Origin: Endomicrobiia bacterium | GTDB taxonomy: Bacteria; Elusimicrobiota; Endomicrobiia; DTEH01 | Length of the DNA: 64,000 nucleotides | Direction: 5' to 3' | Assembly: GCA_025059805.1 (NCBI GenBank) | Contig: JANXDG010000035.1 | Location: 1-64,000, forward strand | Part shown: positions 31,055 through 60,842 of the stretch, piece after piece | How positions within the stretch are numbered: position 1 is the first letter of the stretch | Layout: each line of letters opens with the position of its first letter | Notes under the pieces: generated by a model | The model's database searches: none | Told to the model about the DNA's origin: nothing | The model's input: the letters and a program-made list of their open reading frames with translations, nothing else | Made by a program: the position numbers and the translations under genes

Positions 31055-34000
31055 TTAAAACCTTATGATGACCTGTCCTTGTGCAGAATATGCATAATTT
31101 GTCTCTGTTTTTACCACACGGTTAATATTAACATCTGTCCCTAATCCAAGAGATATATTTATATATTTTGATATGTCGTAATCAGCCTTCGCTAAAAAAT
31201 TAATTTGGTCGGTGTTATTCTTTGCTATATCTATAGGACTTTCTTTACGGACATACGTAAGAGTTGAGTTAATCCTTAATCTATTTTGCAATGGTATTTT
31301 TTTACCAAGAATTTGTAATCCACCTTGTGCCGGTACAATATCAGCATAATAAGTAACACTAAATGTATGAGTTATAATATCCTTAGTAGGTAATTTACGT
31401 GCATCCTCAGCATATTCTTTCTTGTATTCATATCTAGGAGTTAACCTTTGTCCAAAAAACGGCATACCAACTTGCAAACCAATTATGTCTGTATATGACA
31501 TCATTGTTATGATGGAAAGTTTAAAATTATATAGATCAGAATACATTCTTTCATAACTTGACACTATTTGGTAGTTGTCAAACAAATCAAAACTCAGTAC
31601 CTCTCTATGCCTAATACCTTGTTCAAAACTTATAAATCTTATCTCTGTTGTTCTATAGGTATATGTAATGTCCAGTCTTGTATCTCTTACAACTTTTTGT
31701 TGAGATATAACAAACTTTGCTAAATCTTCTAAATTATAAAATGTTGAGGTTAAATCTGGCCAAACTTTAGTGTAAGTAAGTGTTTTTGTTTGCATTTCCT
31801 CTTTTTCTTCTTTGGAATCTGAATATGAGAAGTTAACATCTGTCTTTTTTAAGAACTCAAGATTTCCAGAAAAAGGAACACCTTCAAAAATTTTCCATCC
31901 GCCAGTGAGTTTCTGATCATTTCGTTCAAGCATACGCCTTCTTAATAAAGTTGTAGTTGTAATTTCAGTTTTATACCAAAGTAGATCTAAATTCTTGAAA
32001 TTAAAAAAATCAGGGCTTCTAAAATCCTTTGGCAAACTTTCATATTTATCACCTGCAGTAAGGTTGAAATTATAGTATAATTTCAGCGATTCTATATATT
32101 TAAGTTTTAGTATATCAACTGGTGCTAAATTCACAGAGAAACTCCCTGTCATATTTCGAGTAATATCTTTCTTTGTGGCTATAGGAAAATTAAAATCTTC
32201 AAATAATTCAACTCTATATCCAAGATTCGGTCTAAAAAATCTAACAAAATTCAATGTCGTGTTTGCCTCTGCACCATATTCATTTCTTTTCTCATAGGAA
32301 CTGATAACTATAGAATAAGTTGTATAGTATAACTCATAAGTTTTATATAAATTGTACATAGTGAAAAAAGTAAGTTTCGAATAATAATCTATTATATCAG
32401 AATCTGGTTTTAATCGTGGTATCACGAGTTTTTCATTTATGTCACCGCCTAATTGTCTAAGTTCGGTAAAGGTGTTTTTTACCCCAGCATTCAAACTTAA
32501 AGAAATCTTATCCCAGAAATTGAACGGCAGTCCAAAGTTAACAAATTTAGAATTATCAACAGAAGGATAGTAAGTAGTAGTAACTACGTTCCAAGTATAA
32601 AGCAGAAACTTTTCTTCACCGTATGTAACTGAAAGTTTTTCCACTGGTATATATTTTCGTAACGGATTATTATAGCTTAAATTTGTTCTATAAGTATCCT
32701 TAATATCCAACCGTCGTAATTCAGTCGTTGAAGATACAGATTTTGTATAATTTATATTAATTTGAGGTAAACGGTTAAATAGTAAACTTGTATCAACCTT
32801 ACCTTCAGTATACAACCTTTCTCCTTCTTCAAGTTTAGAAACTAATTCACCTGACTTTATAGCAGAAGGTGTTATTGTTTCTTCTTGTTTCCCATGAAAA
32901 CTTACAGGCATAAATCCTAACCTTGTAAAATTAAAAAATCCGACGTTTGTAATATTATCCTGATTTGTAATAGACATTGTAAAAGTTTCAAAATCACGTT
33001 CTACACTACGTGTCATTCCACCAAAGCTCGCCCAGTTTGGTATTGACATATTAAGTTCTAATTTTCGTGCAATACCTTTCCTTTTCCAACTTTCAGAAAG
33101 ATAAATATCGTTAATATAAATTACTCCCTGTTGCGAAGTAATTCCTGGCGGGTTTTCAACGATTATTTCTATTTTCGTTATTGCATGCAGTTTAGGTGTA
33201 CCTTTGATACTACACACTCCTGCATTATCCCCGATTATTGCATCCCATTTATCCGGAATATTATCATTATTAATGTCTACTTGTTCAACTGAAATTTTTT
33301 TCCATTCATTATATTGTCTTGATATAGGTGTAGCGTATTCAAAATAATTATTTATATCAGTGTATGCACGGAAACGCAAAATTATATCATTCTCTGTTTT
33401 ATTAAACACGAAAAAGTTTAGCTTGTGATGAAATGTAAAATCTAACCCGCGAGTATATGATAAGTTGACTACAGAAGATGAAAACCTATTATCAAAATTG
33501 TACTCTATAGCAAGCGTTTGTTCTATTATTTCTTCTCTTTCACGAGTACCATAGATAGAAGAATACTCTTCCAATTCCGAGAGTTTCTTGTAGAACGGAT
33601 CATTTTCGTTGTTTACTGCAAAAATTCTAGTATTCTGTGGTGTTGCAATTTCAAACTTATTACCGACTACAGAAATTTTACCAATTTTCACTATTCCAGT
33701 TTTACCATGACCTTTTATTCTTATCCTTGCGTCTTTAACAGATGTCCACAACGATTTATTTGCGATATTAATAGGAACTATTGTTGAAATCCATCCAGTA
33801 AAATTTAAATCAGCGACTTTGTACCTATCTGTAATTTTGTCTACACCAAAAAGTAAACCGTCATTATCAATGTCTTCACTGTCAAGTTTTCCGTTAGACA
33901 AACCTATCTTATATTCTCGCTCACGATTATATGAAAATCCGGCATCTTCTTTTTCATCAAGACGGCCATTTGAATTTTTATCTTCCGTATCAAGTATTTT

Positions 34001-36193
34001 ATCTTGGTCAATATCTTCACTTACGTGCCCTAGGTCTAACCAAAATTCGCCGCCACCACCATTGCTATAAAGTTCTATCTCAATATACATTTTCTTAGAG
34101 AAATCTAACCCTGTCCTAGAAAACTGGTAAACCATTGCTACTTCGCTTGAAGAATAAAGGTTATAATTTATTTTTAGTACTTGTCTTTTCCCCTCGCTAT
34201 CTATATTTGGATTGATTTCCTTTGATAACAATTCTTCATTTTCCCAGTTCAATTCTCCACCAATATATTTATCTGAATTAGAATCATAACTACCAGGAAT
34301 ATATACATCTGAACAACTTGAATAATACCAAGTATGCCTGTATGTGGAAACACTATCTTCCAAAGTAATGCCTTCCATATTCTCTAAGACAGCCTTATCC
34401 CAGATGTTAGGATTTTTTATACTCTCTGCATATTCGCCAGAAAAAGAATTTATTCTAAGTGGTAATAATGGAATCTTCACATCTATAATTCTTGCATCTG
34501 TTTCCCAAACTTGTAGAGAACTTGGGGTAGTTCTTACATCTGGAACTGAACTACCCTTTGAAGGTAAATTGCCTATCCAACTACCTCCAACAAAGAGTTT
34601 ATTTGAAAGTGGTACTTCTAACCTACCTCCGGCAATTGTTTCACCAGCTTGTAAACCGAGCATACTATATTCGTATCCAACTTCTATAATTGAAGTTTCA
34701 GTAATTTCTTCTTCATTAAGGAATGTTATAAAACCTGAATCATAATCTATCCAATAATCTACATTGCGTTGTAACGGTCTTCCATTAAGTGTAATTCGTT
34801 CTGAATAAGGAACAATGAAAGGTTTTAAAAAATATGTCTTGGTCCTGTATCTATACTCAACAAGAATGTTATATCTACTCAAGGGTGTCTTATAATAGCA
34901 ATCTTCTGCAAAAGGTTTTTCTATATCAAAATAAATTTCACCGTTTTCAAAATCAACTTTAATATTACCTAAGTTACCGGTTAAATATACAGGGACATCT
35001 TTTCCATCAGGTAAGATTTTGTCAGTTTCCGGATTTAACGGTCGATCAGATTTGTCAGTAATTTTTAAAATAAAGTTACCGGTGCCATCATCACGTATTA
35101 TGTTTGTTCTACCAAGATAATACCTGTTTTTCAGTTCTGTAGTAATTCCTTCGGTTTCGTTCCTATCTTTTATCATAATATAGTTACCGTTACCATACTG
35201 TTGACTTAACCATTGTTCACTATCTTCAATGAAGTAATCCACAGCGATTATATAATTTGATTGTATACTCTTGTTGAATATAATAATACCTTGAACATAA
35301 TCAACAAAATAATCTTTCCCTAATGCTAACTCTTCAAATTTACCTGTATAAGTAGACGATGGAACATTAAAAGCTTGTACCGTCATAACTCGTAATGTTG
35401 TAGGATCACGTTGCGGATCTAAAGTATCAACAACTATTCGTACTGTATCTCTTCTAATTTTATAGTTACCAAAAATAATCTTATAATATTTTCTTCTTAT
35501 GTATGATGTATCATATATAACCTTACGTTCAAACTCTGTTTTTCCAGTGAACCTCTTAGTTTCATAGTTACCTTTTGCCTGCGATGCTATAACATGTAAT
35601 TTTGCATTATTGTATTGTGCGATAACCTTTAGTCCAAAAACTTGACGTGAGTAACCAACAAACTCTGTATTCGGTAAACTTAACTGGATGTCACCAAACG
35701 CAGCTTCTTGTATAAACGTACCCGGTCTTGCTTTGTACCCAACTGCACCTGGTTGCGCTTCCACTCCTTCACCGCGGTATATTATTGAAATATCTCGCTT
35801 GTCAGGTTGTGTATCATCTATGTCTATATTAACATCAACATTTTTGCCAACTTTACCACGGATGTTCACCTGTAGTTCTTGTTTCATATTAATATCTGTT
35901 CTATTATGTTCTGGACGGTGTGGATATTGAACAGTTTTAACTTCCATACCAATAAGTTTTCGTCCTGCTATACTGAGTTGTGTGCCTTCCATAAACTCTA
36001 TAGTTGTAGGGGTTAATATTGGAGGTGCCGCTGTTACTGTAGAACGTTCTTCCTCAAATAATGGTTGGTTATTTTCAATACGAGTTCGTGTCTCGTTCCA
36101 TTTCTTCTGGTCAAATTTAAACAATTCTTCTTGAGCAACCTGGCCAAACAAACTAATCCAAATTGTCGAAAAGAAAATAATAAGTTTTTTCAC
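31055..36193 (-). CDS. Giant outer-membrane protein, SprA/Sov-like (T9SS translocon-like)
   Basis: 1712 aa, signal peptide, LQVNIRGKVGKNVDVNIDIDDTQ...EAAFGDIQLSLPNTEFVGYSRQVFGLKVIAQYNNAKLHVIASQAKGNYETKRF; NVDYWIDYDSGFITFLNEE; many beta-strand-like segments to a C-terminal Phe (VIIRF). Confidence 0.7.
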   Translation of the reverse strand: MKKLIIFFSTIWISLFGQVAQEELFKFDQKKWNETRTRIENNQPLFEEERSTVTAAPPILTPTTIEFMEGTQLSIAGRKLIGMEVKTVQYPHRPEHNRTDINMKQELQVNIRGKVGKNVDVNIDIDDTQPDKRDISIIYRGEGVEAQPGAVGYKARPGTFIQEAAFGDIQLSLPNTEFVGYSRQVFGLKVIAQYNNAKLHVIASQAKGNYETKRFTGKTEFERKVIYDTSYIRRKYYKIIFGNYKIRRDTVRIVVDTLDPQRDPTTLRVMTVQAFNVPSSTYTGKFEELALGKDYFVDYVQGIIIFNKSIQSNYIIAVDYFIEDSEQWLSQQYGNGNYIMIKDRNETEGITTELKNRYYLGRTNIIRDDGTGNFILKITDKSDRPLNPETDKILPDGKDVPVYLTGNLGNIKVDFENGEIYFDIEKPFAEDCYYKTPLSRYNILVEYRYRTKTYFLKPFIVPYSERITLNGRPLQRNVDYWIDYDSGFITFLNEEEITETSIIEVGYEYSMLGLQAGETIAGGRLEVPLSNKLFVGGSWIGNLPSKGSSVPDVRTTPSSLQVWETDARIIDVKIPLLPLRINSFSGEYAESIKNPNIWDKAVLENMEGITLEDSVSTYRHTWYYSSCSDVYIPGSYDSNSDKYIGGELNWENEELLSKEINPNIDSEGKRQVLKINYNLYSSSEVAMVYQFSRTGLDFSKKMYIEIELYSNGGGGEFWLDLGHVSEDIDQDKILDTEDKNSNGRLDEKEDAGFSYNREREYKIGLSNGKLDSEDIDNDGLLFGVDKITDRYKVADLNFTGWISTIVPINIANKSLWTSVKDARIRIKGHGKTGIVKIGKISVVGNKFEIATPQNTRIFAVNNENDPFYKKLSELEEYSSIYGTREREEIIEQTLAIEYNFDNRFSSSVVNLSYTRGLDFTFHHKLNFFVFNKTENDIILRFRAYTDINNYFEYATPISRQYNEWKKISVEQVDINNDNIPDKWDAIIGDNAGVCSIKGTPKLHAITKIEIIVENPPGITSQQGVIYINDIYLSESWKRKGIARKLELNMSIPNWASFGGMTRSVERDFETFTMSITNQDNITNVGFFNFTRLGFMPVSFHGKQEETITPSAIKSGELVSKLEEGERLYTEGKVDTSLLFNRLPQININYTKSVSSTTELRRLDIKDTYRTNLSYNNPLRKYIPVEKLSVTYGEEKFLLYTWNVVTTTYYPSVDNSKFVNFGLPFNFWDKISLSLNAGVKNTFTELRQLGGDINEKLVIPRLKPDSDIIDYYSKLTFFTMYNLYKTYELYYTTYSIVISSYEKRNEYGAEANTTLNFVRFFRPNLGYRVELFEDFNFPIATKKDITRNMTGSFSVNLAPVDILKLKYIESLKLYYNFNLTAGDKYESLPKDFRSPDFFNFKNLDLLWYKTEITTTTLLRRRMLERNDQKLTGGWKIFEGVPFSGNLEFLKKTDVNFSYSDSKEEKEEMQTKTLTYTKVWPDLTSTFYNLEDLAKFVISQQKVVRDTRLDITYTYRTTEIRFISFEQGIRHREVLSFDLFDNYQIVSSYERMYSDLYNFKLSIITMMSYTDIIGLQVGMPFFGQRLTPRYEYKKEYAEDARKLPTKDIITHTFSVTYYADIVPAQGGLQILGKKIPLQNRLRINSTLTYVRKESPIDIAKNNTDQINFLAKADYDISKYINISLGLGTDVNINRVVKTETNYAYSAQGQVIIRF

Positions 36194-38510: not shown

Positions 38511-39407
38511 CTAATGCGTTAATTTTATACTAACCAGTAAACCATGCAAATTACCTAAGTATTTGTGTTGTGTGAATGAATAATCAAAAACGATTCTATT
38601 AATTTTTATCCCGATACCACTGCTATATATTTCTATATAGTTACCTAAACCATATCCCAAATTTAGCACTACACTGTTTTTAAGATCTTTGCTACTGTAA
38701 ACATTTGCTGAAATACCAAATTTTAGATTATCATCTAACTTTTTCTGAATATAGTTTTCATAACCAATAATAAATTTTATCCGTTTTAGCTCAAGACCTA
38801 AAGCTTCACTATGCGTTAAATTACTATTTGTACCAAGGCCTCTTACAACAGCACCAATCTTTAAAGATTTAAATACATCTCCACCAAACCGATATAAATA
38901 TAATAAGCCAATATTACCTCCCCAATATTGTGAATTTGTATTAATACTTTCACGTAAGCCATATCCTGATAATCCTAACCATAAGTGATACTTCTTACCT
39001 GAAGTTAATACTGAAGAAAAACCAAACGCTGCTAAAGTTGTAGAATACTCAGCTTCTTCTCCCGTAAGTTCTCCTTCAATATTTCTTACTTTTATTTTTC
39101 CTGAAGTGAACTTACCTAATACTACTGCAACAGAATTATCAACACCTGCTGTCCTTTCTTTAAATGAAAATCCAAAAATGTCATAACTTGTATCCGCAAA
39201 ATAAAGTATTTTGTTGTATTCAATATTGAATCCTGACTGTACCATAGCTAACATTGATGGGTTCATAACAACACTAAACGCTCCACTGTCAACAAGTGAT
39301 ACCTCGCCAGCTAACGAAAAACTTTTCCCAACAGGAAGATTAAGAATTTCAACTTGTTCTGCAAAACACAGATATACTAAAAGTATAGTGTATAATATTT
39401 TTTTCAT
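38511..39407 (-). CDS. PorV/PorQ/UPF0164-like outer-membrane barrel
   Basis: LPVGKSFSLAGEVSLVDSGAFSVVMNPSMLAMVQSGFNIEYNKILYFADTSYDIFGF. Confidence 0.7.
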   Translation of the reverse strand: MKKILYTILLVYLCFAEQVEILNLPVGKSFSLAGEVSLVDSGAFSVVMNPSMLAMVQSGFNIEYNKILYFADTSYDIFGFSFKERTAGVDNSVAVVLGKFTSGKIKVRNIEGELTGEEAEYSTTLAAFGFSSVLTSGKKYHLWLGLSGYGLRESINTNSQYWGGNIGLLYLYRFGGDVFKSLKIGAVVRGLGTNSNLTHSEALGLELKRIKFIIGYENYIQKKLDDNLKFGISANVYSSKDLKNSVVLNLGYGLGNYIEIYSSGIGIKINRIVFDYSFTQHKYLGNLHGLLVSIKLTH

Positions 39408-49197: not shown

Positions 49198-51942
49198 TTA
49201 AATTTTTAAAACAGGTTTAGTCAACCAATCCCATATTTTTGATAAAAACCCTTTTTTCACGGGATATCTCACTACTACGGTTCCGTTTTGCTTTGTAACT
49301 GTTTCTTCTTCTACCACTTTTGTATCTTTGAATTCTACAGTTTTATTTCTAATATCAGATGCTAATGTTAAGGTTTCAATGCGAGTCCTTAATTTTGCAA
49401 TTTCTTCTTCTTTTGAATTAATTATCTTTTCCATCTCGCGATATTCATTTAAGAGTTTTGCGTAAATTTCTTTCCATGCGATGTCTATCTTATCTATAGT
49501 TTCCTCGTGTTGCTTTTCGATCTCGTTTAATTTTTCTGTATAACGCTGAACAATCCTATTTTTTTCAGACTCAAATTTATCTTTTAGTCCCTTAAGCTTA
49601 TCCTCATATTCTTTGATTTTTTGTATTTGCATGTTTTCCTTCTCTGATAAGCTTTTTATTCTTTCTTCTAATTCTATCTTTTCTTTCGTATATAATTCTC
49701 TTTCCTTATTCATAGTTTGTTTTAAATCTTCAATTTTTTCTTTCAACATTGAAATTTCATCTCTCATCTTATCTTTTTCACTCTTTTCCGCTTCGTAATT
49801 TTCTTGTAAAACTTTTATCTTTCGTTCTGCTTCTGACAATTTTGTAAGTAATTCCGCAGTTTCGTTTTCTTTTAATTCAACTGCTCGCTTAGAACTTTCA
49901 AGTTCATTCTGCAGTTTACCTAAATCTATTTTCAAATCTTCGTATTTCTTTATCAAAAGTTGATAATCATTATTAAGATTCTCATATTTTGAACGAACAT
50001 CATTATATGAACTCTCAATATTTTTTAAATCTAATACTTGTTGCATCAGATTGTCTTTATCATTTTTCAAAACTAGTAGCTCGTTTCTTAATTTGTTATT
50101 CTCTTCCACTAACGTTGACTTTTCATCTGACAATTTCTCTAATTTTTCGTTTAATATTTGTAAAGTTTGTTCATAATTCTCTTCCATTTCCTTAATTTTT
50201 ACTAATTCCTGCTGATATTTAGCCACTGCTTCTTCATACTGTTGTTTCAACTCTTTGTACTTAGATAAATGACTGTTTATAATATTTTCTTTTTCTTCAA
50301 TTTCCTCAAATAAATGTTTGTTTGTTGTTTCAAGCTGAGAAATATATTTTTGATATTCTGCTAATTTTGAATTTAAACGGTTATTCACTTCATCTTCAAA
50401 ACTTTTCCTTAGTATTTCATAATCATTAATTATTTTTTGCTTTTCTTCTAATAAATGTCTGTTTAACTGTTCAATCTCTGCAATACGTTGTTCATATTTA
50501 GCAACTTTTTGATTTAATTCCTCATCTAATTTTTTACTATAACTCTCATAATTGTTCCTTAACTCTTCGTACTTCTTTTGATATTGCTGTACTATATTTT
50601 CTTTCTCTTCTCTTAATTTTTCTATTTGTAAAATTAATGCATCATTTTCTTTAACTAATTTTTCTATCATTTCCTTCTGTTCATTACCTTCTTTAATGAA
50701 ATTGCTAATTTGTTTTTCAATTTGGGCAATACGTTCATCTCTTTTAATGATTTCTTCATCTTTTCTTTTAGTCTCTTCTGTTAGATGTCCTAAAAGTTGT
50801 TCCTTCTGAATTATCAAATTTTGTAAAGAATCAATCTTTTCTTGAAGTTGCTTTATTTCTGTTATTCGTTGTTGAGTAGCTTTTTCTAATTCAATCTTAT
50901 GTCTTGCCTGTAAAATACCTATTTGCGTTTTCAGTACAAAATATTCTCTCTCACGTTCTTCCTTCTCTTGTTTTAATACTCGTAACTCTGCTTTCATATT
51001 GTCTATTATTCCTTGCATTTTTAAAATTTGCTCATCACGTTTCTTAATTTCAAATGTTAACTTATCATTATTAACATTAGATTCAGATTGTACCATTGCA
51101 ATCTGTGATTTTAAACTCAAAACTTCTTTCTCTTTTTGTTCTAACATATCTTTTAAATGTTTAATTTCTGTCTCAAAATTTTTATATTGAAATTTATATT
51201 CAGAAATTTGTCTTTCTACATCAGCTTTGAGTTTTTCTTCTAACATTTTGTATTCATTCCTTACACGAGCAATTTCTTCTTCTTTATTTTTTAAAAGTAT
51301 CTGGAATTTACTTTTTTCTTCTTGCCATCGTAATTCTAAATCACGTATCTTATTAAGAAACTGTTGTTCAACACGTTGATGTTCAACATCACGTTGGCCA
51401 AGTTGCGTTTTTAATGTTTCAATCCATGTCTCACGTTCTTTAGCAAGCCGTTCTTCTAATTCCTTTATTCTTCTGTTCAGATTTTCTTTCTCTTCTATAA
51501 GTTCTTTCTCACGTTTTTCTCTCTGTAAACGCTCTTGTATATCACGTATACTTTCTTCTACTTTAGCAGCAAGTGCTTCCTCTTCCTTTGATTTTATTGT
51601 CTGTAACATCAATTTTTCTCGTTCTTCAAGAAGCATCCTTTGTAACTCTTGTAATTGTATTTCCATCTGACGTTTTGCCTGTTCTGCTTCCCACAACCGT
51701 TGTTCCAAAACAGAACTAAACTGTGGCATTACACTGGTCTGTTGCTGAGAGAACAATACACCAGACGTAACATTAGAAGGTTGTTGCACCATCTTTGATG
51801 TTTGCTGAGTTAACTTTGGAGCAGGTGGTATCTTACCTGACGGCTGGCTTAATGGCGACTTAGGTACATTTTCAACCTTCGGCTTGTTTTGTTGTGGCAA
51901 TGGCGGTTTAGGTATTTGTGGTAATTTTTTTTCTTCTGCCAT
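49198..51942 (-). CDS. Large coiled-coil protein with Pro/Gln-rich N-terminus
   Basis: PQIPKPPLPQQNKPKVENVPKSPLSQPSGKIPPAPK, long heptad-rich region, C-terminus KKGFLSKIWDWLTKPVLKI. Confidence 0.85.
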   Translation of the reverse strand: MAEEKKLPQIPKPPLPQQNKPKVENVPKSPLSQPSGKIPPAPKLTQQTSKMVQQPSNVTSGVLFSQQQTSVMPQFSSVLEQRLWEAEQAKRQMEIQLQELQRMLLEEREKLMLQTIKSKEEEALAAKVEESIRDIQERLQREKREKELIEEKENLNRRIKELEERLAKERETWIETLKTQLGQRDVEHQRVEQQFLNKIRDLELRWQEEKSKFQILLKNKEEEIARVRNEYKMLEEKLKADVERQISEYKFQYKNFETEIKHLKDMLEQKEKEVLSLKSQIAMVQSESNVNNDKLTFEIKKRDEQILKMQGIIDNMKAELRVLKQEKEEREREYFVLKTQIGILQARHKIELEKATQQRITEIKQLQEKIDSLQNLIIQKEQLLGHLTEETKRKDEEIIKRDERIAQIEKQISNFIKEGNEQKEMIEKLVKENDALILQIEKLREEKENIVQQYQKKYEELRNNYESYSKKLDEELNQKVAKYEQRIAEIEQLNRHLLEEKQKIINDYEILRKSFEDEVNNRLNSKLAEYQKYISQLETTNKHLFEEIEEKENIINSHLSKYKELKQQYEEAVAKYQQELVKIKEMEENYEQTLQILNEKLEKLSDEKSTLVEENNKLRNELLVLKNDKDNLMQQVLDLKNIESSYNDVRSKYENLNNDYQLLIKKYEDLKIDLGKLQNELESSKRAVELKENETAELLTKLSEAERKIKVLQENYEAEKSEKDKMRDEISMLKEKIEDLKQTMNKERELYTKEKIELEERIKSLSEKENMQIQKIKEYEDKLKGLKDKFESEKNRIVQRYTEKLNEIEKQHEETIDKIDIAWKEIYAKLLNEYREMEKIINSKEEEIAKLRTRIETLTLASDIRNKTVEFKDTKVVEEETVTKQNGTVVVRYPVKKGFLSKIWDWLTKPVLKI

Positions 51943-51975: not shown

Positions 51976-54900
51976 TTACTTTTTATTAATTTCTTTGAAC
52001 CAGGATTTGACGACAGTATTATCAGGATTTATCTCGAGCACTTTTGCTGCAAATTCATTTGCTTTTTCTAAATTACCAATATTAAAATAACATAAAGCAA
52101 TATACTGGTTTATAACTTCGTTTTTATCATCATATTCTACTAATTTCAAAAATTCTTTTAGCGCAAGATTGTAGTTTTTCATCTCAAACAATTGTATAGC
52201 ACGTGAAAGTTCCTCTTTGTTAATTTCCGTCACATCTTTATTAGTAAAACTTACCTTTGAAAGTTTTTCTTGAACCATATTACTAATTTGTCTTTCTACA
52301 CGTAACTCTTTGTCTTTATCTGTTAACAAATCCTGTTCTAACTTTATTTTCGTATCAAGTTTTTCCAATAATTCACTTATACCATTTTTATAATTATTAA
52401 GCATAACTTTAAGCATTCTTATTTCATCTTCTAATTTTTCTTTCAGTTGTTTTTTACTCATTATGAACCCTTGCTTCTCATTTTCATAAGCTGTTACTAA
52501 ATCATTAATTTCACCTTTAAGATTATTTAAAGTTTGTTCATATGAAGTAATTTTTGGCCTAAATTGTTCAGTTCTTTCATTATATCTATTCTTTAGTGCT
52601 TCTAATTCAATATTCAACCTGGATAACTCTTTTTCAACAAATTCTTGTCTTCGTTTTTTCTCATCCTCTATACTTTGTATTCTGATATTATACCTTACTT
52701 GTAAGGAATTTAGTTCGTTTTCCTTAGTTTTTATGGTTTCCACAAGCATTTCGGTTTCTCTATTGAATTCTTGAATAATTTTATCCCTTTGCTGCTGATA
52801 TTGAAGACTGATTTTTCTTAATTCAAATTCAAATTTTTCTTTTAATGAACGTAATTCAATATCTTTCAGTGCACGTTTTGTTTTTAAATCTTCAATTTCT
52901 CGTTGCAAATCCTGAAGTATCTTATCGTTTTCTTGTTCTACTTGTTTTAATTTCTTTTCCAACATATTTATTTCTGATACCATTTGTATTCTTTTAGTTT
53001 CGAACTCCGTATCAATCTTTTCAATTTCATTAGTCAACATTATTTCTTTATTTTTAAGTTCCTCTTCTATTTTTTGTTGTTGCGATACCAATTGATTTAA
53101 TTGCTCAAGATATGAAACACGTTGTTGTTCCAGCTGTTGTTTTAACAATTCAAGTTCATCTTTTAATTTTTGATTTTCTAATAATAACATCTGTTCTCTT
53201 TTTTCTTGTTCAACTTTAGCATTGATTTCCCAATTTGCAAGTTCTAACTTTAAATTTTTAATTTCTTCTTCTTTCGTCCTTCTTGTTTCTAACAATTGCT
53301 CTTGTTTGAATTTTAATTCTTCTTCTAGTTCAGAAACTTTTGCAGTTAGTTTTTCTATTTTAATAGTAAAATCTTTTTTCTTATTTTCATATTCATTTAA
53401 TAACTGATTATACTTGTTTTCGTATTCTTGTTTAACATTTACTAACATCTGTTTTTTCTCTGCTAACTTCAGTTTATACATATCCTCTTCAGATTTTAAC
53501 TTTGCTTTCACTGATTCTATCTCATGGTTTAGTGACGATTTTAAGTCTTCAAATTCCTGTTGCCTAATTGCCCACTCTTGTTCAAAATTATCTTTTCTTG
53601 TAACAAATTCTGTTTTTAGTTTTAATATCTCAGCATCTAACTTCTCAGTTATTTCTTTTATTTCCTGTTCTACTTTAGCAATATCAGATATTAATTTCTG
53701 CTGTTGTTGCTGTAAACCTTCAATTTTTTTCAAATTGACCTCGGTTAACTGTTGAATATCATTTACTAATTTCTTTTCTCTTTCTTGTAGTTCAGATATC
53801 AATCTATCTATTTCACTTTGCTGTTCAAAAAGTTTAGCTTCATATTCTTTCTCTATAGATTTTAACATTTCAGCATAAGAATTGATTCTTTTTTCAAGAC
53901 GTGTCTGCAGTGTATCGGCCATTTTTTGTATATTTTTAAATTTAAGTTGATATTGAAGTTCTAACTGTTGTAAATTTTTTGTCATTTCATCTCTTTGTCT
54001 CTCTTTTTCAGCAATTATCTTGGGCATATTTTCTTGTAAATCTTTAAGTTGTTTAGTGAGTTCTTCAATCTTATGTTCTAACTCATATTTCTTTAACTCA
54101 AATTCCTCAACTAATTTTGCCTGTTCTGCGTTTAACTGTTCAAACCTAGTAGTGTAATATTCAATTGCTTCGTTCTTTTTTACTTCTAATGCATAAATTT
54201 CTTGTTTATATTTCTGTTCTAAATCTTTAATTTGTCGTTCTTTGTCTTGTATTGTATTAACAAGTGTATTTCTTAACTCTCTTACATATGCAAGTTTTTC
54301 TTCCTCCTGTTTCTTGTAATCTTCAACCAAAGTATTATATTGCTGTTGTTGTTTTGCAATTTCTTCATCGTAATTTATCAATTTTTTGTCGTATTCTTCT
54401 TTTGTCTTTGTCAATTTATCTATTAATTCATCTCTCCTTTGTAGATACGGTACTAGTTTTGATTGACACTCCTCTTCAATTTTGCTTAATTGTTGATTTA
54501 AATCGCTCTTTTTCTGTTCAAGTTCTTTCACCAGGTTCTCAAATTCTTCCTTTTTACTGGTAATAACAGTTTTATATTGCAATTCTTTCTGTAACAAATC
54601 ACTTTCGTACTTACGAATTTTTTCTTCTAACATTTCATGTTCTTGTTTCCATTTAAACTCTATTTCTTGAATAGCTTTTTCCCTGTCCCTAACATATCCA
54701 GAAATTTTTTCATTCCAACTTTCTACTTCCTTTACTTTTTCCTTAAGTGCATTTTCATAATCATCTGTTAATTCTTTAAGTTTTTCTTCAAACTGTCTAA
54801 TATCTACTTCTAACTGTTTTGCAGATTCCTTGTTATTTTGTATAATTTCTTCCTTCTTACGTTCAAATTCAAGACTACATTTCTTTATCTCATCCTGCAG

Positions 54901-56784
54901 AACAGCTATTTCTTTTTCAATTTCCTCTATCCGTCTCTGATACTCCAATTCCATCTCTTTGGACTGTTGTTCAATAGTCTCTATTTTATTCTGTAATTTT
55001 CCTTTTTCTGTTTCAATTTCCTCAATCTTATGTTTATACTTGCTTTCTAAATTTTCTTTTACTAATTCAAATTTTTTAATAATCTGTTGAACTTCTTTTT
55101 CTCGCTCCTTCTCTATGTTTCCGATTTCTTGCTCTCTACGTTTTATTTCTTCAGTTAAGTCTTTTACCTTTTCATAAAGAGGCTCATTTTCTTTAGCAAT
55201 TTCTTTAGCAACTATATCCAATTTAGCTTCTTGCAACTTAAGTTCTTGTTCTAATAAACTCTTTGCTTTTATAAGTTCTGCTTCTTTAGAATTAAGAACA
55301 CGTTCAAGTTCTGCTTTACGTTTTTCAAATTCTTTTTCCTTTGTAACATATAACTTCTCCAACTCTTCCTTAGTTTGCAGACATTCAGATATGAAGTTTT
55401 CCATATGCTGCTTAAGCTCAGCTAATTTTTGTTCATGTTGAAGTTTAACCTGTTGAATGAGATTTTTCCTTTCAGTAACAACTCTTATTTTTGCAGACTT
55501 CAGATTCTCAAGTTCACGAGTTAACTCTACAATAGTTTTTTCAAGTTCCTTTTTCTCTTCATCTAATTTTTTGAGTTTGTTTCTCCATTCTTCTTGTAAT
55601 TGAGCAACACGTTTCTGGTATAAAAGTTGCGTTTGAGTAATCTCCTGTTCTTTACTTTGTATAAGATTATTATAATTTTCATATTCCCTAGCGAACTTTT
55701 GCTCAAGTTCAGCTAATTGATGTCTAATTTTCTGTTCTTCTTCTAACAAAACTTTCTTCTTTTGTTCAATTAACGCATTATATTGTGTCTCTTTAAGCAT
55801 TAGTTCTACTTTATATTGCTTTATTTCTTCATCTTTCTTCTGTAACTCTTTTTCAAATTCTTGTTCGTACTTTCTTAACTCATCCTCAAGTGATTTTATT
55901 TTCTCTTGATAGTTTTCTTTAGTACGTTGTAGGTTCCGCAGAAGTTCTTCTTGTTGTTGTTCCCATTCTGAATACTTTTGTTCTAAAACATATTTAACCG
56001 TCATAAACTCTTCTTCCTTAGATTTCAAAAGTTGCTTATATTGTTCTATTTTTTCATCAAACTTCCGTTGCATTTCTGTAACTTGATGAATACGTTTTTC
56101 ATTTAAATCTTTCGCAGCAAGCAGAAATTTCTCTTCTTCAATTTTTAACTGTTGTTCTTTAAGCTGTACTAAAGATTTTAATTTTAGTATTTCTTCTTCT
56201 TTCTCAGACAACCTCTTTTTGAAGTTTACTTTTTCTTCTTCCAACTGCCTATTCAAAGCATCTATTCTTTCCTGTAGTATGCTTAACTCTTCCTTAAATT
56301 CCTGCTGTTTCCTATCCATAATCATTTTATGTTGCGCTTCTTCAAAAACAGCTTTGTTCCTTAATTGTTCAATCTCACTATTTTTCTCGTCTAATTTTTT
56401 TTGCCATTGCATTATCTCTTGATTGTATTCATCGGAAAATTTTTGTAACTGTTGTGCAATGGAAGATTTAATGCTTTCTAACTCTTTTTCATAATGTGAT
56501 CTATTTGTGTTAATTTTATGCTCAAGCGTACTTAACCTCATTTCAAGCGATACTTTTTCTTCTTCTACAGATTTAATTTTGTTTATTAACTCTTCGCGTT
56601 CCTGTTGTATTTTTTGTTCCAAATATCTTATATTAGCATAAAGATTTTCTCTAACAAGAGCAGGTTCCATATCATCTGTAGTAGAGGTTATCTCGGATTG
56701 ATTCTGAACCTGTTCCTTATTTACATTGTCTAATTGACTTGTTTTCTGTACAATTTTGTTTTTTATCTTATCAAATATATTCAT
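51976..56784 (-). CDS. Giant (1602 aa) coiled-coil protein with C-terminal TPR
   Basis: Nearly continuous charged heptads; C-terminus AIQLFEMKNYNLALKEFLKLVEYDDKNEVINQYIALCYFNIGNLEKANEFAAKVLEINPDN (TPR). Confidence 0.88.
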   Translation of the reverse strand: MNIFDKIKNKIVQKTSQLDNVNKEQVQNQSEITSTTDDMEPALVRENLYANIRYLEQKIQQEREELINKIKSVEEEKVSLEMRLSTLEHKINTNRSHYEKELESIKSSIAQQLQKFSDEYNQEIMQWQKKLDEKNSEIEQLRNKAVFEEAQHKMIMDRKQQEFKEELSILQERIDALNRQLEEEKVNFKKRLSEKEEEILKLKSLVQLKEQQLKIEEEKFLLAAKDLNEKRIHQVTEMQRKFDEKIEQYKQLLKSKEEEFMTVKYVLEQKYSEWEQQQEELLRNLQRTKENYQEKIKSLEDELRKYEQEFEKELQKKDEEIKQYKVELMLKETQYNALIEQKKKVLLEEEQKIRHQLAELEQKFAREYENYNNLIQSKEQEITQTQLLYQKRVAQLQEEWRNKLKKLDEEKKELEKTIVELTRELENLKSAKIRVVTERKNLIQQVKLQHEQKLAELKQHMENFISECLQTKEELEKLYVTKEKEFEKRKAELERVLNSKEAELIKAKSLLEQELKLQEAKLDIVAKEIAKENEPLYEKVKDLTEEIKRREQEIGNIEKEREKEVQQIIKKFELVKENLESKYKHKIEEIETEKGKLQNKIETIEQQSKEMELEYQRRIEEIEKEIAVLQDEIKKCSLEFERKKEEIIQNNKESAKQLEVDIRQFEEKLKELTDDYENALKEKVKEVESWNEKISGYVRDREKAIQEIEFKWKQEHEMLEEKIRKYESDLLQKELQYKTVITSKKEEFENLVKELEQKKSDLNQQLSKIEEECQSKLVPYLQRRDELIDKLTKTKEEYDKKLINYDEEIAKQQQQYNTLVEDYKKQEEEKLAYVRELRNTLVNTIQDKERQIKDLEQKYKQEIYALEVKKNEAIEYYTTRFEQLNAEQAKLVEEFELKKYELEHKIEELTKQLKDLQENMPKIIAEKERQRDEMTKNLQQLELQYQLKFKNIQKMADTLQTRLEKRINSYAEMLKSIEKEYEAKLFEQQSEIDRLISELQEREKKLVNDIQQLTEVNLKKIEGLQQQQQKLISDIAKVEQEIKEITEKLDAEILKLKTEFVTRKDNFEQEWAIRQQEFEDLKSSLNHEIESVKAKLKSEEDMYKLKLAEKKQMLVNVKQEYENKYNQLLNEYENKKKDFTIKIEKLTAKVSELEEELKFKQEQLLETRRTKEEEIKNLKLELANWEINAKVEQEKREQMLLLENQKLKDELELLKQQLEQQRVSYLEQLNQLVSQQQKIEEELKNKEIMLTNEIEKIDTEFETKRIQMVSEINMLEKKLKQVEQENDKILQDLQREIEDLKTKRALKDIELRSLKEKFEFELRKISLQYQQQRDKIIQEFNRETEMLVETIKTKENELNSLQVRYNIRIQSIEDEKKRRQEFVEKELSRLNIELEALKNRYNERTEQFRPKITSYEQTLNNLKGEINDLVTAYENEKQGFIMSKKQLKEKLEDEIRMLKVMLNNYKNGISELLEKLDTKIKLEQDLLTDKDKELRVERQISNMVQEKLSKVSFTNKDVTEINKEELSRAIQLFEMKNYNLALKEFLKLVEYDDKNEVINQYIALCYFNIGNLEKANEFAAKVLEINPDNTVVKSWFKEINKK

Positions 56785-56806: not shown

Positions 56807-58723
56807 CTAAGCTGAAACACTAATAGATTTTTCAAATTCTTTAACCCATTCTGCAAATTCTTTATCCTGCGGATTTAACTCCACAACCTTCTTATAATAA
56901 TCAAGTGCTTCAGCATACATACCAACTTCGTAATATATGTTGCCTAGATATTGATAAGCTTCATACAGATGTGGGTCAAGCTCTGTTGCATACTGTAAAT
57001 AATTTATTGCATTCTCATAGTCACCCTGCTGATAAAAATCAATACCTGCTATATAATATTCATATCCTGGTGATTCTTCTATCGCACGGGGTCTAGAAAC
57101 CATAACTTCAGATGCATCAATACGAAAAGTTTTTTCCCGTTCTCCAAGATATATTTTCCCTTCCTGTTCCATTTTCTTAATTATTTCAATTATTTTATCT
57201 TGTTCTTCTTCTATTTGCTCCCTTGTCATAGGTCTGCCATAGTCCATCTCTTCTTTTACCAATGCCTGAGCACCTTCGGACATATTTTTGAAAAATTTTT
57301 CAACAAGTTGCTGTGGTGCATTCCTTAAGGCTCGTGCAACGTTTTCAGGTTTTAACTCACGTATTATGGTCTGTAAAGTGATATCAGGTATTTGAAGTAT
57401 GTCTTCAAACAAAAATACCTGAGGTCTAACCTTTTGATAAATTTCTGGTTTTTCGTTTTTTAAATATTCAAGTATATTATCCCTTGTGGTTTTGTCTACC
57501 TTTTGTAATAATTCTACCAAATGATGAATACCACCAACAAGAAAATCAATTCGTTCTTTAACATAGTTGTCCATTCTAATAACCTCTTGCTGTGGTATTT
57601 CTCTTGCCTGAGCTAAAGCAACTGCCACCTGTGCTTGTAGTTGTGGTTTAAAACTTTCAATAATCTGTTTAACATATTCAGGCTTAAGATAGCTAAGAAC
57701 TATTGCTATATCTTCTGGTTTTTCCTTTGCTATTAAATATATTAAACGTTTAATATTATCGTCATCAATATAACTAAAAGGTATATATTTACCTTCTTCC
57801 TCCTTTTGTTTTTCTTTCTCAGATAGTTCAGCCTCGGTCATCCCTGTACCAATACCGACACCTCCAGTACCTCCTCCGGGTCCACCTAGTCCCTCAGGAC
57901 CAGTTTCTCCTTCACGGGCAAGTTTTGAATCAATGGAAATCTCAGTGGGTGCACGCTCTCTCAACATACGTATGTAGTTCCTAAGAAACTCAGCTACTGG
58001 TCCAAATAAGAATAAAATTATTAAAAGTGTTATTATTAATGGTACAAAGTATTTTGGTAAAATTATTGTCTCTAAAAACTTACTCCAAATACCTGTCGTA
58101 AACTTAGCTTTCTTAAATATTATATCGCGTTGAGGATTTCTTATTCCCATAGAAGATGCAATTGCATCTCTAACGAGTTCAACTTTATCATCTTTAATCT
58201 TTTCATCATAAATCACTGTGACAGTCTGTCTTTCAATAACAACCTCTGTCCTTATACCAACAACTTCAGTTCCTGATGCTTCCCCTTTAGCTTCGGTTGG
58301 CACTGCAGATTCTGCAATTGACCCGGGTTTTGGTATACCAGGTAGTAGATATTCAACATCGCCAAGTTTACGTTTAGCATCAACTCGTTTCTCAGTTGCT
58401 TGCTGTTTAGTAGTAGTTGTCCTTAGACCTAGTGTTATATCAACCATAACAGTGGACCTGTTTGGACCAAAAATTTTGTCTAATATGTTTTTCTGGATAT
58501 ACTCAGCTCTTTGCTGTTCAATTTTAGTTTCGTACTCAAGTAAAGATGTAGGTGTAATCTGTTGTTCTGGGTTAGGTTGAGATACGGTTGGTGTCTGACT
58601 GTAAAGTGTAACTATTGTGGTAAGCAGAATTATTAACAACACATATCTGTAATTGTTATAATCCATTTTTTTATTTATACAAAATCTGTAATTTTGTTTC
58701 AAGAATATTTTTATAAATTTCAT
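56807..58723 (-). CDS. FliF C-terminal-like/FliG-like/TPR fusion protein
   Basis: FliF-like: ILDKIFGPNRSTVMVDITLGL...ERQTVTVIYDEKIKDDKVELVRDAIASSMGIRNPQRDIIFKKAKF + TM. FliG-like: LFEDILQIPDITLQTIIRELKPENVARALRNAPQQLVEKFFKNMSEGAQALVKEEMDYGRPMTREQIEEEQDKIIEIIKKMEQEGKIYLG. TPR: YEYYIAGIDFYQQGDYENAINYLQYATELDPHLYEAYQYLG. RBS TTGGAGG. Confidence 0.85.
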   Translation of the reverse strand: MKFIKIFLKQNYRFCINKKMDYNNYRYVLLIILLTTIVTLYSQTPTVSQPNPEQQITPTSLLEYETKIEQQRAEYIQKNILDKIFGPNRSTVMVDITLGLRTTTTKQQATEKRVDAKRKLGDVEYLLPGIPKPGSIAESAVPTEAKGEASGTEVVGIRTEVVIERQTVTVIYDEKIKDDKVELVRDAIASSMGIRNPQRDIIFKKAKFTTGIWSKFLETIILPKYFVPLIITLLIILFLFGPVAEFLRNYIRMLRERAPTEISIDSKLAREGETGPEGLGGPGGGTGGVGIGTGMTEAELSEKEKQKEEEGKYIPFSYIDDDNIKRLIYLIAKEKPEDIAIVLSYLKPEYVKQIIESFKPQLQAQVAVALAQAREIPQQEVIRMDNYVKERIDFLVGGIHHLVELLQKVDKTTRDNILEYLKNEKPEIYQKVRPQVFLFEDILQIPDITLQTIIRELKPENVARALRNAPQQLVEKFFKNMSEGAQALVKEEMDYGRPMTREQIEEEQDKIIEIIKKMEQEGKIYLGEREKTFRIDASEVMVSRPRAIEESPGYEYYIAGIDFYQQGDYENAINYLQYATELDPHLYEAYQYLGNIYYEVGMYAEALDYYKKVVELNPQDKEFAEWVKEFEKSISVSA

Positions 58724-58743: not shown

Positions 58744-60393
58744 TTATTCTAACTCTTGTAGGAATTGTTGTACAACACGATTAGTTGGATCAAGTTCTAA
58801 TACTTTCTTCCATACAGCTTTAGCTTTATCAACTTCGTTCATCATAAAGAATGCCGAACCCATAATTTCAAGCGCTGTAGTATTTTTTGGTTCTAAATTC
58901 AAAACTTCCTGACATTTCCTTATAGCATCGGTGTACCTACCGTTTAGTACATCTTCTCTTGCTTCATATATCTTTTTGTCAATAATGGTCCACCCAGCAA
59001 TTTCTTCCTTATATGCTTCTGTTAAAGGTAAACCTGCAAGTTGTTCCATACGGTTTAGCAACTGGTGTAAAGGTTTATTTGCTGGATTTTTGTAATATGC
59101 ATATCTTAAAGCGTTTACTGTCGTCATAATGTCATCTTCCATTAGTGCTTGAACAGCTTTTCTTATACCTTGATGTTCTTCAGTATCTTCAGTTGCAGAA
59201 GTTATATATGCGGTTATCAATAATAAGTTGTCTAACATCTTTTTCACATCTTTCCTGTTAGGATCAACCTGATATGCTGACTGCAATGTTTTTGTCGCTT
59301 CAAGAAATTGTCCAGCAGTATACCTTGCTATAGCTTCACTGATTAGACGTTTTATTACTTCATCTTTGTCAAACTTAACTGATTTACCCCATTTCATAGA
59401 TGCTGAAACTCTGTGTGAAAATCCTAAATCATGATAAGCGAATGAATAATCTATTCCATAATCTTTATATCTACCACCTAAACCAGCGGTTACTTCTTTA
59501 AGATAACTTAGTCCTTCAAAACCAAGCCGTAAAGCTAGAAAATCAAACAACCAATATTCAGTGCCTAACATCCATTTTAGTTCTGCGTTAACATTTTTTT
59601 CAAAATCTATCCCAACTGTTAATCTATAAAAATATTCTTCCTTCTCATATGCAGTTCTTACTGCTAACAATCTTTTAAAAAATCTGTATGACGCACCCAG
59701 TCTAAAAATAATTGGTAATTTATCCTCAGTGTTATAACTCATTGAAATAAGATTTTTTACACCTACTGCTACATTAAGCAGTGGTAAATACGAATTGAAT
59801 CCTGTAATTAAACAATTAGCATCAATGCCAAGCATCATATCGCTATATACGTCTAACTTACGAGAAACATATTTCGCTGCAAGACCAATATTTATCTGTT
59901 TTGCTACATCTTTTCCATAACCTAAAATTAATGCAATCTGTCTATCATCAAAAGTTCCCAGGTTTTCTATTTTTACAATATCATATGTTTGTGGATCAAA
60001 CTCAATTTTTATCTTTTCAAAACCAGTTGACAATAATTGATTAACTGCTATTGAAAATACGCCGTATTTAATCGTCGGATAAACAAATCCTAAGTAGTCA
60101 TATATTGTCTGAGTATTCGGAAAAAGTTCTGTATGTAAAGCAGATATCTCTTTTCGTGAACATTGAGGTAATCCAGCAGGATTATAATATAAAGCAGTGG
60201 CATCATCAGCAATTGAGAAGAATGCTTTCATTGCCATTGCACGTGCTGAAGCACCAAATTGTAGAAATTCTGCTGGCTGGCCTCCTGTGTATGCTGCTAG
60301 TAATATATTTGTGTTCACTAATAATACCAATACCACCTTAACACAGGTTTCAAACATCATAGCCGAAGTTATCATAATGTGAATCTTTTTCAT
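58744..60393 (-). CDS. PorV/UPF0164-like outer-membrane protein with C-terminal TPRs
   Basis: GGQPAEFLQFGASARAMAMKAFFSIADDATALYYNPAGLPQCSRKEISALHTELFPNTQTIYDYLGFVYP; C-terminal DAIRKCQEVLNLEPKNTTALEIMGSAFFMMNEVDKAKAVWKKVLELDP. Confidence 0.85.
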   Translation of the reverse strand: MKKIHIMITSAMMFETCVKVVLVLLVNTNILLAAYTGGQPAEFLQFGASARAMAMKAFFSIADDATALYYNPAGLPQCSRKEISALHTELFPNTQTIYDYLGFVYPTIKYGVFSIAVNQLLSTGFEKIKIEFDPQTYDIVKIENLGTFDDRQIALILGYGKDVAKQINIGLAAKYVSRKLDVYSDMMLGIDANCLITGFNSYLPLLNVAVGVKNLISMSYNTEDKLPIIFRLGASYRFFKRLLAVRTAYEKEEYFYRLTVGIDFEKNVNAELKWMLGTEYWLFDFLALRLGFEGLSYLKEVTAGLGGRYKDYGIDYSFAYHDLGFSHRVSASMKWGKSVKFDKDEVIKRLISEAIARYTAGQFLEATKTLQSAYQVDPNRKDVKKMLDNLLLITAYITSATEDTEEHQGIRKAVQALMEDDIMTTVNALRYAYYKNPANKPLHQLLNRMEQLAGLPLTEAYKEEIAGWTIIDKKIYEAREDVLNGRYTDAIRKCQEVLNLEPKNTTALEIMGSAFFMMNEVDKAKAVWKKVLELDPTNRVVQQFLQELE

Positions 60394-60842
60394 CTAATAA
60401 ATCCAATTTTACGTATAAGTTTTATATTGTCGTACATAAGCACACAAATATATCCACCTGAGGAAACTTGTTGATGTGCTTCATTTTTGCCATCCCATAT
60501 CACTATGTATTCGTCCCTTCCTAATAATTCATATGTTCTTACTAAGTTGCCAAATGTGTCGTATATTTTAACATTACAATCCGTTATTCGGGGCAACCTA
60601 ATATATATGTAGGTGAGAGTTTTGAATGGATTAGGAAAATTGATAAGTATGGGCATTTGTTCATCTTTAATTGGTAGTTGTAAACTCACATTTTCTTCTA
60701 AACCTTTCAAAAACCCAATGTGTAAATTATTAAAAAATACCTCTGAATTCAATATGTTTTTAGAAACTACAAAAGACACTATTGCAGCGTATGTAAAGGT
60801 TTTGTAAACTTTAAAATTTTGACTTAAAAAAAATATTTTCAT
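60390..60842 (-). CDS. Small secreted protein consisting mainly of a T9SS/FlgD-like C-terminal domain
   Basis: ILINFPNPFKTLTYIYIRLPRITDCNVKIYDTFGNLVRTYELLGRDEYIVIWDGKNEAHQQVSSGGYICVLMYDNIKLIRKIGFIR; 4-nt overlap with the PorV-like gene. Confidence 0.75.
   Translation of the reverse strand: MKIFFLSQNFKVYKTFTYAAIVSFVVSKNILNSEVFFNNLHIGFLKGLEENVSLQLPIKDEQMPILINFPNPFKTLTYIYIRLPRITDCNVKIYDTFGNLVRTYELLGRDEYIVIWDGKNEAHQQVSSGGYICVLMYDNIKLIRKIGFIR

What the first reader, a model, noticed from the sequence alone, without database searches (positions are those of the whole stretch)
56807..58723. Single polypeptide fusing FliF C-terminal domain, FliG middle/C-terminal domains and TPRs, with no flagellar genes in the window
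Seen: the ORF reads as signal/TM segment, a FliF/YscJ C-terminal-like periplasmic region, a TM (FVPLIITLLIILFLFGPVAEFL), a Gly-rich linker, a FliG-like region and C-terminal TPRs. Known: FliF and FliG are normally separate MS-ring and C-ring proteins. Inference: a repurposed rotor or scaffold ring in which the TPRs recruit a non-flagellar partner, possibly the adjacent giant coiled coils or the PorV-TPR protein.
Basis: partly seen in the sequence, partly recalled or inferred. Interest (0 to 1): 0.92.

Follow-up and report, generated by a model that had tools for sequence, protein, structure and literature searches.

The report
Flagellar-type rotary motor without a flagellum
A group of uncultured bacteria (Elusimicrobiota) carries a one-piece version of the flagellum's rotating ring, together with matching ion-driven stator genes and outer-membrane and surface proteins, but none of the flagellum's export or switch genes tested, which points to an undescribed rotary machine, perhaps for gliding.

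Summary
Window 56807-58723(-) encodes signal peptide/TM, a FliF RBM3/beta-collar domain, a TM, a Gly-rich linker, FliG_M, FliG_C and TPRs, in an Endomicrobia (Elusimicrobiota) genome. Sequence profiles and Foldseek support both halves. FlhA and FliM/FliN were found in none of 18 FliG-bearing genomes (own included), so this is not a flagellar gene. Nor is it a relic: FliG_C occurs in 152 of 342 Elusimicrobiota genomes, mostly in fusion-sized frames. The operon CTD protein, PorV-TPR, FliF-FliG-TPR, coiled coil(s) is conserved across families. In other classes MotA-MotB stator genes sit inside it, often behind a giant exoprotein; the window's genome keeps that MotAB type on another contig. MotB_plug occurs in 18/18 FliG+ but 2/83 FliG- relatives. 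Stator-facing residues (K264, D288/D289; MotA R90/E98; MotB D32) are mostly kept; FliM-facing H126 and R160 are lost. One member has both a canonical flagellar operon and this operon. Best reading: a non-flagellar ion-driven rotor-stator machine, probably moving surface proteins (gliding-like). Rotor-stator identity is strong genomic inference; the output is hypothesis. The known natural precedent, the Chlamydia FliF-FliG_M fusion, lacks FliG_C.

The parts
56807..58723 (-). FliF(RBM3/collar)-TM-FliG_M-FliG_C-TPR fusion, 638 aa (likely true start near 58666)
58595..58666 (-). signal peptide or N-terminal TM (residues ~20-43)
   Evidence: sequence, hydrophobic stretch LLIILLTTIVTLYS; helix in model
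57956..58591 (-). FliF RBM3/beta-collar-like periplasmic region plus TM (residues 45-256)
   Evidence: profile and Foldseek matches to FliF
57980..58045 (-). TM helix (residues 227-248)
   Evidence: sequence; model helix 223-256
57143..57787 (-). FliG_M and FliG_C (residues 313-527)
56813..57064 (-). C-terminal TPRs (residues 554-637)
58744..60393 (-). PorV-family outer-membrane protein with C-terminal TPRs, 549 aa
   Evidence: NF033709 107 bits, over cut-off 90; syntenic in relatives
60390..60842 (-). 150-aa protein with FlgD_ig/T9SS-like C-terminal domain; stands where relatives have a giant CTD exoprotein
   Evidence: FlgD_ig 27.1 bits at cut-off, T9SS type A weak, synteny
51976..56784 (-). 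1602-aa coiled coil with C-terminal TPR-like end
   Evidence: composition, weak TPR, synteny
49198..51942 (-). 914-aa coiled coil with Pro-rich head and C-terminal W-rich motif (KIWDWLTKPVLKI), found across the phylum
31055..36193 (-). SprA/Sov-like outer-membrane translocon homologue (possible accessory, not in the operon)
   Evidence: TIGR04189 E 2e-23, below cut-off

Best explanation
The ORF encodes the subunit of a flagellar-derived rotor ring that works without a flagellum. SHOWN by sequence and structure comparison: one chain combines a FliF RBM3/beta-collar periplasmic part and TM with FliG_M, the FliG_C torque domain and TPRs; FliG_N, whose job in flagella is to bind FliF, is dispensed with. 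Its partners are genetically linked: PorV-TPR, CTD protein, coiled coils and, in other classes, MotA-MotB. INFERRED: many copies form an inner-membrane ring, and ion flow through peptidoglycan-anchored MotA/MotB turns MotA against the FliG_C ring as in flagella; with no FliM/FliN there is no canonical switch, and with no FlhA no type III export and hence no rod, hook or filament. HYPOTHESIS: torque passes through the periplasmic collar to the PorV-TPR/outer-membrane side and moves a CTD-bearing surface protein, giving gliding-like movement; TPRs and long coiled coils form a cytoplasmic platform.
For: FliF and FliG identity. No FlhA, FliM/N or YscJ_FliF over cut-off in 18 fusion-bearing genomes. 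MotB_plug in 18/18 FliG+ versus 2/83 FliG- relatives (Fisher 5e-18). The C77 MotAB type lies in the fusion operon in L085, L090, L092, L093, L095, L149, and its MotA in L147. Stator-facing residues mostly kept and FliM-facing ones lost. Conserved operon with PorV, coiled coil and giant CTD exoproteins. One genome has a canonical flagellar operon and this operon side by side.
Against: No experiment; ring formation, rotation and output are untested. FliG R281 and R297 equivalents are lost. G004 has the fusion without a C77-type MotAB match and G003/G011 the MotAB without FliG. In the window's genome the stator is on another contig and the CTD protein is only 150 aa. The co-occurrence test is not phylogenetically independent. 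Draft MAGs.
Confidence: 0.55

Rival explanations
1. The same rotor-stator motor exists, but its job is to energise T9SS-like protein secretion across the outer membrane (a substitute for GldL/GldM), not movement.
For: PorV family, CTD exoproteins and a SprA-like protein in the same genome; PorV is an attachment-complex or shuttle component in T9SS (PMC8986121); FliG+ genomes carry more FlgD_ig/CTD domains (median 17 versus 1).
Against: The GldM search was uninformative.
Confidence: 0.22
2. A static scaffold: the fusion ring anchors the giant coiled coils and PorV-TPR at a cell site, without rotation; MotAB serve something else.
For: Window operon has no MotAB in it; TPRs and coiled coils are typical scaffolds; R281/R297 lost.
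Against: MotAB lies in the operon in other classes and co-occurs almost perfectly; stator-facing K264, D288/D289 and MotA R90/E98 are mostly kept.
Confidence: 0.13
3. A remnant of a lost flagellum, or a Chlamydia-like FliF-FliG accessory of a type III system.
For: Homology to FliF, FliG and MotAB; a natural FliF-FliG_M fusion in non-flagellated Chlamydiaceae (PMC4768692).
Against: No FlhA or FliM/N in 18 genomes; expanded and phylum-wide; coexists with a canonical flagellar operon in G209; fusions form a clade apart from canonical FliG.
Confidence: 0.03

Closest known systems
Bacterial flagellar motor (FliF MS-ring, FliG, MotAB)
   Same: FliF RBM3/collar and TM, FliG_M and FliG_C, MotA/MotB stator with conserved Asp and FliG-contact residues
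   Different: single-chain rotor, no FliF RBM1/2, no FliG_N, no FliM/FliN, no FlhA; TPRs added; linked to PorV, CTD proteins and coiled coils
Chlamydiaceae FliF-FliG fusion (PMC4768692)
   Same: natural fusion of shortened FliF with a FliG part in bacteria not thought to be flagellated
   Different: Chlamydia keeps two RBMs and only FliG_M, has FlhA and a type III system; here RBM3/collar with FliG_M and FliG_C, TPRs and MotAB, without FlhA
Bacteroidota gliding/T9SS motor (GldLM, SprA, PorV, SprB)
   Same: PorV family protein, CTD-bearing surface proteins, SprA-like protein, ion-driven inner-membrane motor proposed
   Different: FliF-FliG rotor with MotAB instead of GldLM; GldK/N and PorU not tested
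Myxococcus Agl-Glt gliding motor
   Same: MotA homologue with two MotB homologues (AglRQS, PMC9389320), as in the paralogous FliFG-MotA-MotB-MotB operons; coiled-coil and TPR partners and outer-membrane partners (AglZ/Glt details from memory)
   Different: Agl-Glt has no FliF or FliG rotor ring (from memory)

Membership tests
Bacterial flagellum | type III export gate FlhA | tested here: not met
   0 of 18 FliG+ genomes; positive controls ring
Bacterial flagellum | FliM/FliN switch (SpoA domain) | tested here: not met
   0 of 18; positive controls ring
Bacterial flagellum | FliF with YscJ-type RBM1/2 | tested here: not met
   none over cut-off in 18; one 23-bit hit lies in a kinase-like ORF
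Bacterial flagellum | FliG_M and FliG_C | tested here: met
Bacterial flagellum | MotA/MotB stator with ion-binding Asp | tested here: met
Bacterial flagellum | rod, hook and filament | not tested
   not searched directly in this genome; excluded only by inference from absent FlhA
Chlamydiaceae-type FliF-FliG fusion | FliG_M only, two RBMs, type III partner genes | tested here: not met
   has FliG_C, no FlhA, one RBM seen in the model
T9SS / Bacteroidota gliding motor | GldL/GldM motor | tested here: inconclusive
   GldM 0/101 but no control genome rang; GldL not searched
T9SS / Bacteroidota gliding motor | PorV family protein | tested here: met
   NF033709 over cut-off
T9SS / Bacteroidota gliding motor | SprA/Sov translocon | tested here: inconclusive
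   TIGR04189 81.8 bits, cut-off 200
Flagellar-type rotor-stator motor (mechanism) | ring formation and ion-driven rotation | not testable with these tools
   needs cryo-EM and motility assays

The most novel reading that the evidence does not exclude
A further kind of envelope-spanning rotary machine, distinct from flagellum/injectisome and from GldLM or Agl gliding motors: a flagellar FliF-FliG rotor and MotAB stators, freed from type III secretion and from the FliM/FliN switch, drive giant surface proteins through a PorV-family outer-membrane partner. It is widespread in Elusimicrobiota and occurs in several paralogous versions per cell.
Probability: 0.5. Interest if true: 0.96.

Novelty: new variant of a known kind. 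Interest (0 to 1): 0.9.

Why it matters
It would show that the flagellar torque generator can operate, and diversify, outside any flagellum or type III system. It would give a natural minimal rotor (no RBM1/2, FliG_N, FliM or FliN) for studying torque without switching, bear on whether motor and export apparatus are evolutionarily separable modules, and suggest a motility or secretion mechanism for a phylum in which flagellar genes were reported absent (PMC7031533).

Tried and rejected
Single-genome artefact: rejected, FliG_C in 152/342 genomes. Degenerate flagellum: rejected on FlhA and FliM/N absence and on coexistence with a canonical flagellar operon in G209. Missing MS-ring part elsewhere: the only YscJ_FliF hit (C26:111356, 23 bits) lies within a kinase-like ORF and is taken as chance. 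SprA as obligate partner: no correlation, but that profile also misses the window's own copy. GldM search was uninformative, no control rang. Literature: no held paper contains both 'Elusimicrobia' and 'FliG' as whole words; bioRxiv and most subscription papers are not covered. Breadth outside the phylum rests on one genome-contig scan, whose fusion-type hits were Elusimicrobiota plus two records with other or no phylum labels.

Full report
CHECK OF THE OBSERVATION. The ORF is real: 638 codons, minus strand, 58723 to 56807, in a tight same-strand run: CTD-like protein (60390-60842), PorV-TPR (58744-60393), fusion, 1602-aa coiled coil (51976-56784), 914-aa coiled coil (49198-51942), with gaps of 20-33 bp and one 4-bp overlap. 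Pfam gives FliG_C (101 bits) and FliG_M (40 bits), both above cut-off, and TPRs; FliG_N has only a weak hit that overlaps FliG_M. The FliF half is too diverged for Pfam in this protein, but YscJ_FliF_C appears in 17 of 19 paralogues. A profile of the FliF part of 30 members matches solved FliF (9yh6 E 1e-8, an M-ring chain E 5e-5) and SpoIIIAG (E 6e-4). AlphaFold2 gives helix, long strand, low-confidence loop, long strand, helix, strand, TM helix. Foldseek returns FliF as the first 15 matches for that part, FliG for the cytoplasmic part, and the FliG_C of the MotAB-FliG complex 8UCS (TM-score 0.92 by target length). Mean pLDDT is moderate (71-73); no oligomer was modelled.

WHAT GENOME. The closest named records are Endomicrobia bacteria, phylum Elusimicrobiota. 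The draft genome is 1.64 Mb, about 92% complete.

NOT A FLAGELLUM. In the 18 genomes with FliG_C among the 101 searched (own included; 14 at least 90% complete), FlhA and the FliM/FliN SpoA domain are found in none and YscJ_FliF in none above cut-off, with positive controls ringing. A published comparison also notes absent flagellar genes in Elusimicrobia (PMC7031533). Elsewhere in the phylum G209 does carry a canonical operon (FliF with YscJ domain, three-domain FliG, T3SS-type ATPase, FlgE-like protein; L144) and, on another contig, the fusion in a complete operon (L149). The fusion is therefore not simply the MS/C-ring gene of a flagellum.

STATORS. The window's genome has MotA/MotB in two places: next to a second FliF-FliG fusion (C1: fusion, MotA, MotB, MotB), and alone at C77:7798-9324. 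MotB_plug is found in 18/18 FliG-positive and 2/83 FliG-negative relatives (Fisher 5e-18); that p-value overstates independence, since one FliG-negative family dominates. The C77 MotAB type lies in or just behind the fusion operon in L085, L090, L092, L093, L095 and L149, and its MotA in L147, so it is the presumptive stator of the window's fusion. Exceptions: in G004 the only MotB_plug matches belong to the second fusion's locus; G003 and G011 have MotAB but no FliG.

RESIDUES. On alignment with T. maritima FliG (E. coli numbering and roles from established knowledge), type I fusions keep basic K264 (27/28) and acidic D288/D289, which face MotA, and lose H126 (of EHPQ) and R160, which serve FliM; R281 and R297 are also lost. 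The C77-type MotA keeps R90 (or Lys) and E98 equivalents in most members and its MotB the ion-binding Asp. In the paralogous operons MotA usually has Lys90 and often Gln98, and the second MotB has Asn in place of Asp in several clades.

OPERON ANATOMY. Across Elusimicrobiota families the order is: a long exoprotein (about 1,650-2,600 aa, many cut by the locus end; low charge, several with FlgD_ig/T9SS-like C-terminal domain and an end like RKIGVIH) or a short CTD protein; PorV(-TPR); FliF-FliG(-TPR); one or two coiled coils, one with a Pro-rich head and usually a C-terminal W-rich FW-x-WLN-x-P-like motif; then, in other classes, MotA and MotB. The window has the short CTD protein. PorV family membership passes the curated cut-off. 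FliG_C is found in 152 of 342 genomes and 69 of 100 genera, up to eight copies each; some of these are canonical FliGs of flagellated members (L144, L145). In the tree of FliG_MC domains 47 fusions form one clade (SH-aLRT 99) apart from canonical FliG; a divergent fusion type (L059, L060, L066, L067) sits on its own long branch, so a single origin of all fusions is not proven.

HOW IT MOST LIKELY WORKS. Shown: parts list, domain homology, gene linkage, residue pattern. Inferred: ring formation and ion-driven rotation by MotAB. Hypothesis: torque is delivered across the envelope to PorV-TPR and a CTD surface protein, producing gliding-like movement. The main rival output is powering T9SS-like secretion; SprA-like and CTD proteins survive in FliG-negative relatives, which weakly favours movement. 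I put about 0.8 on a non-flagellar rotor-stator machine of some kind (0.55 with the stated output, 0.22 with the secretion output) and 0.13 on a static scaffold.

NOVELTY. Natural FliF-FliG fusion has a precedent in Chlamydiaceae (two RBMs plus FliG_M; PMC4768692), and engineered fusions are functional in Salmonella and form rings when made from Vibrio genes. I found no paper describing a FliF-FliG-MotAB system without a flagellum; the searches covered only the held open PMC text. The motor core is a variant of a known kind; the organelle, if confirmed, would be new.

Noticed in passing
L002:1720-1722 (G000:C1, about 83184-83186): The second FliF-FliG fusion gene of this genome has an in-frame TAA inside FliG_C where relatives have Gln; MotA and both MotB genes behind it are open. 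Decay of that second motor, or an assembly error.
   Followed up: partly
L003:14874-15584; also L053, L058, L062, L070-L072: The second MotB of the FliFG-MotA-MotB-MotB operons has Asn instead of the ion-binding Asp in several clades, while the first MotB keeps Asp in nearly all; possible MotB heterodimers.
   Followed up: partly
window:31055-36193: 1712-aa SprA/Sov-like protein (TIGR04189 E 2e-23, below cut-off) in a phylum outside Bacteroidota; SprA_N matches occur in 27 of 101 relatives, with or without FliG.
   Followed up: partly
window:39404-41026: M6-family metalloprotease with a T9SS type A sorting domain (TIGR03296, TIGR04183 over cut-off), next to a PorV-like protein (38511-39407).
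   Followed up: no
window:8538-19417: Three large proteins that read like aldehyde ferredoxin oxidoreductases (672, 625, 646 aa) with small ferredoxin-like partners, by eye only.
   Followed up: no
L144 (G209), L145 (G266): Some Elusimicrobiota carry canonical flagellar genes with diverged FliG (L144 checked with Pfam; L145 by similarity only), contrary to the general statement that the phylum lacks them.
   Followed up: partly
G021:C22 around 72011-72193: A FlgD_ig match lies in an open frame of 24,396 aa in a FliG-negative relative, a very large putative surface protein.
   Followed up: no
L094, L095: Fusion operons in records titled 'Clostridia bacterium CSMAG_1339' and 'bacterium CS1-C068'; they group with each other inside the Elusimicrobiota fusion clade, so the Clostridia label may be wrong.
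   Followed up: no
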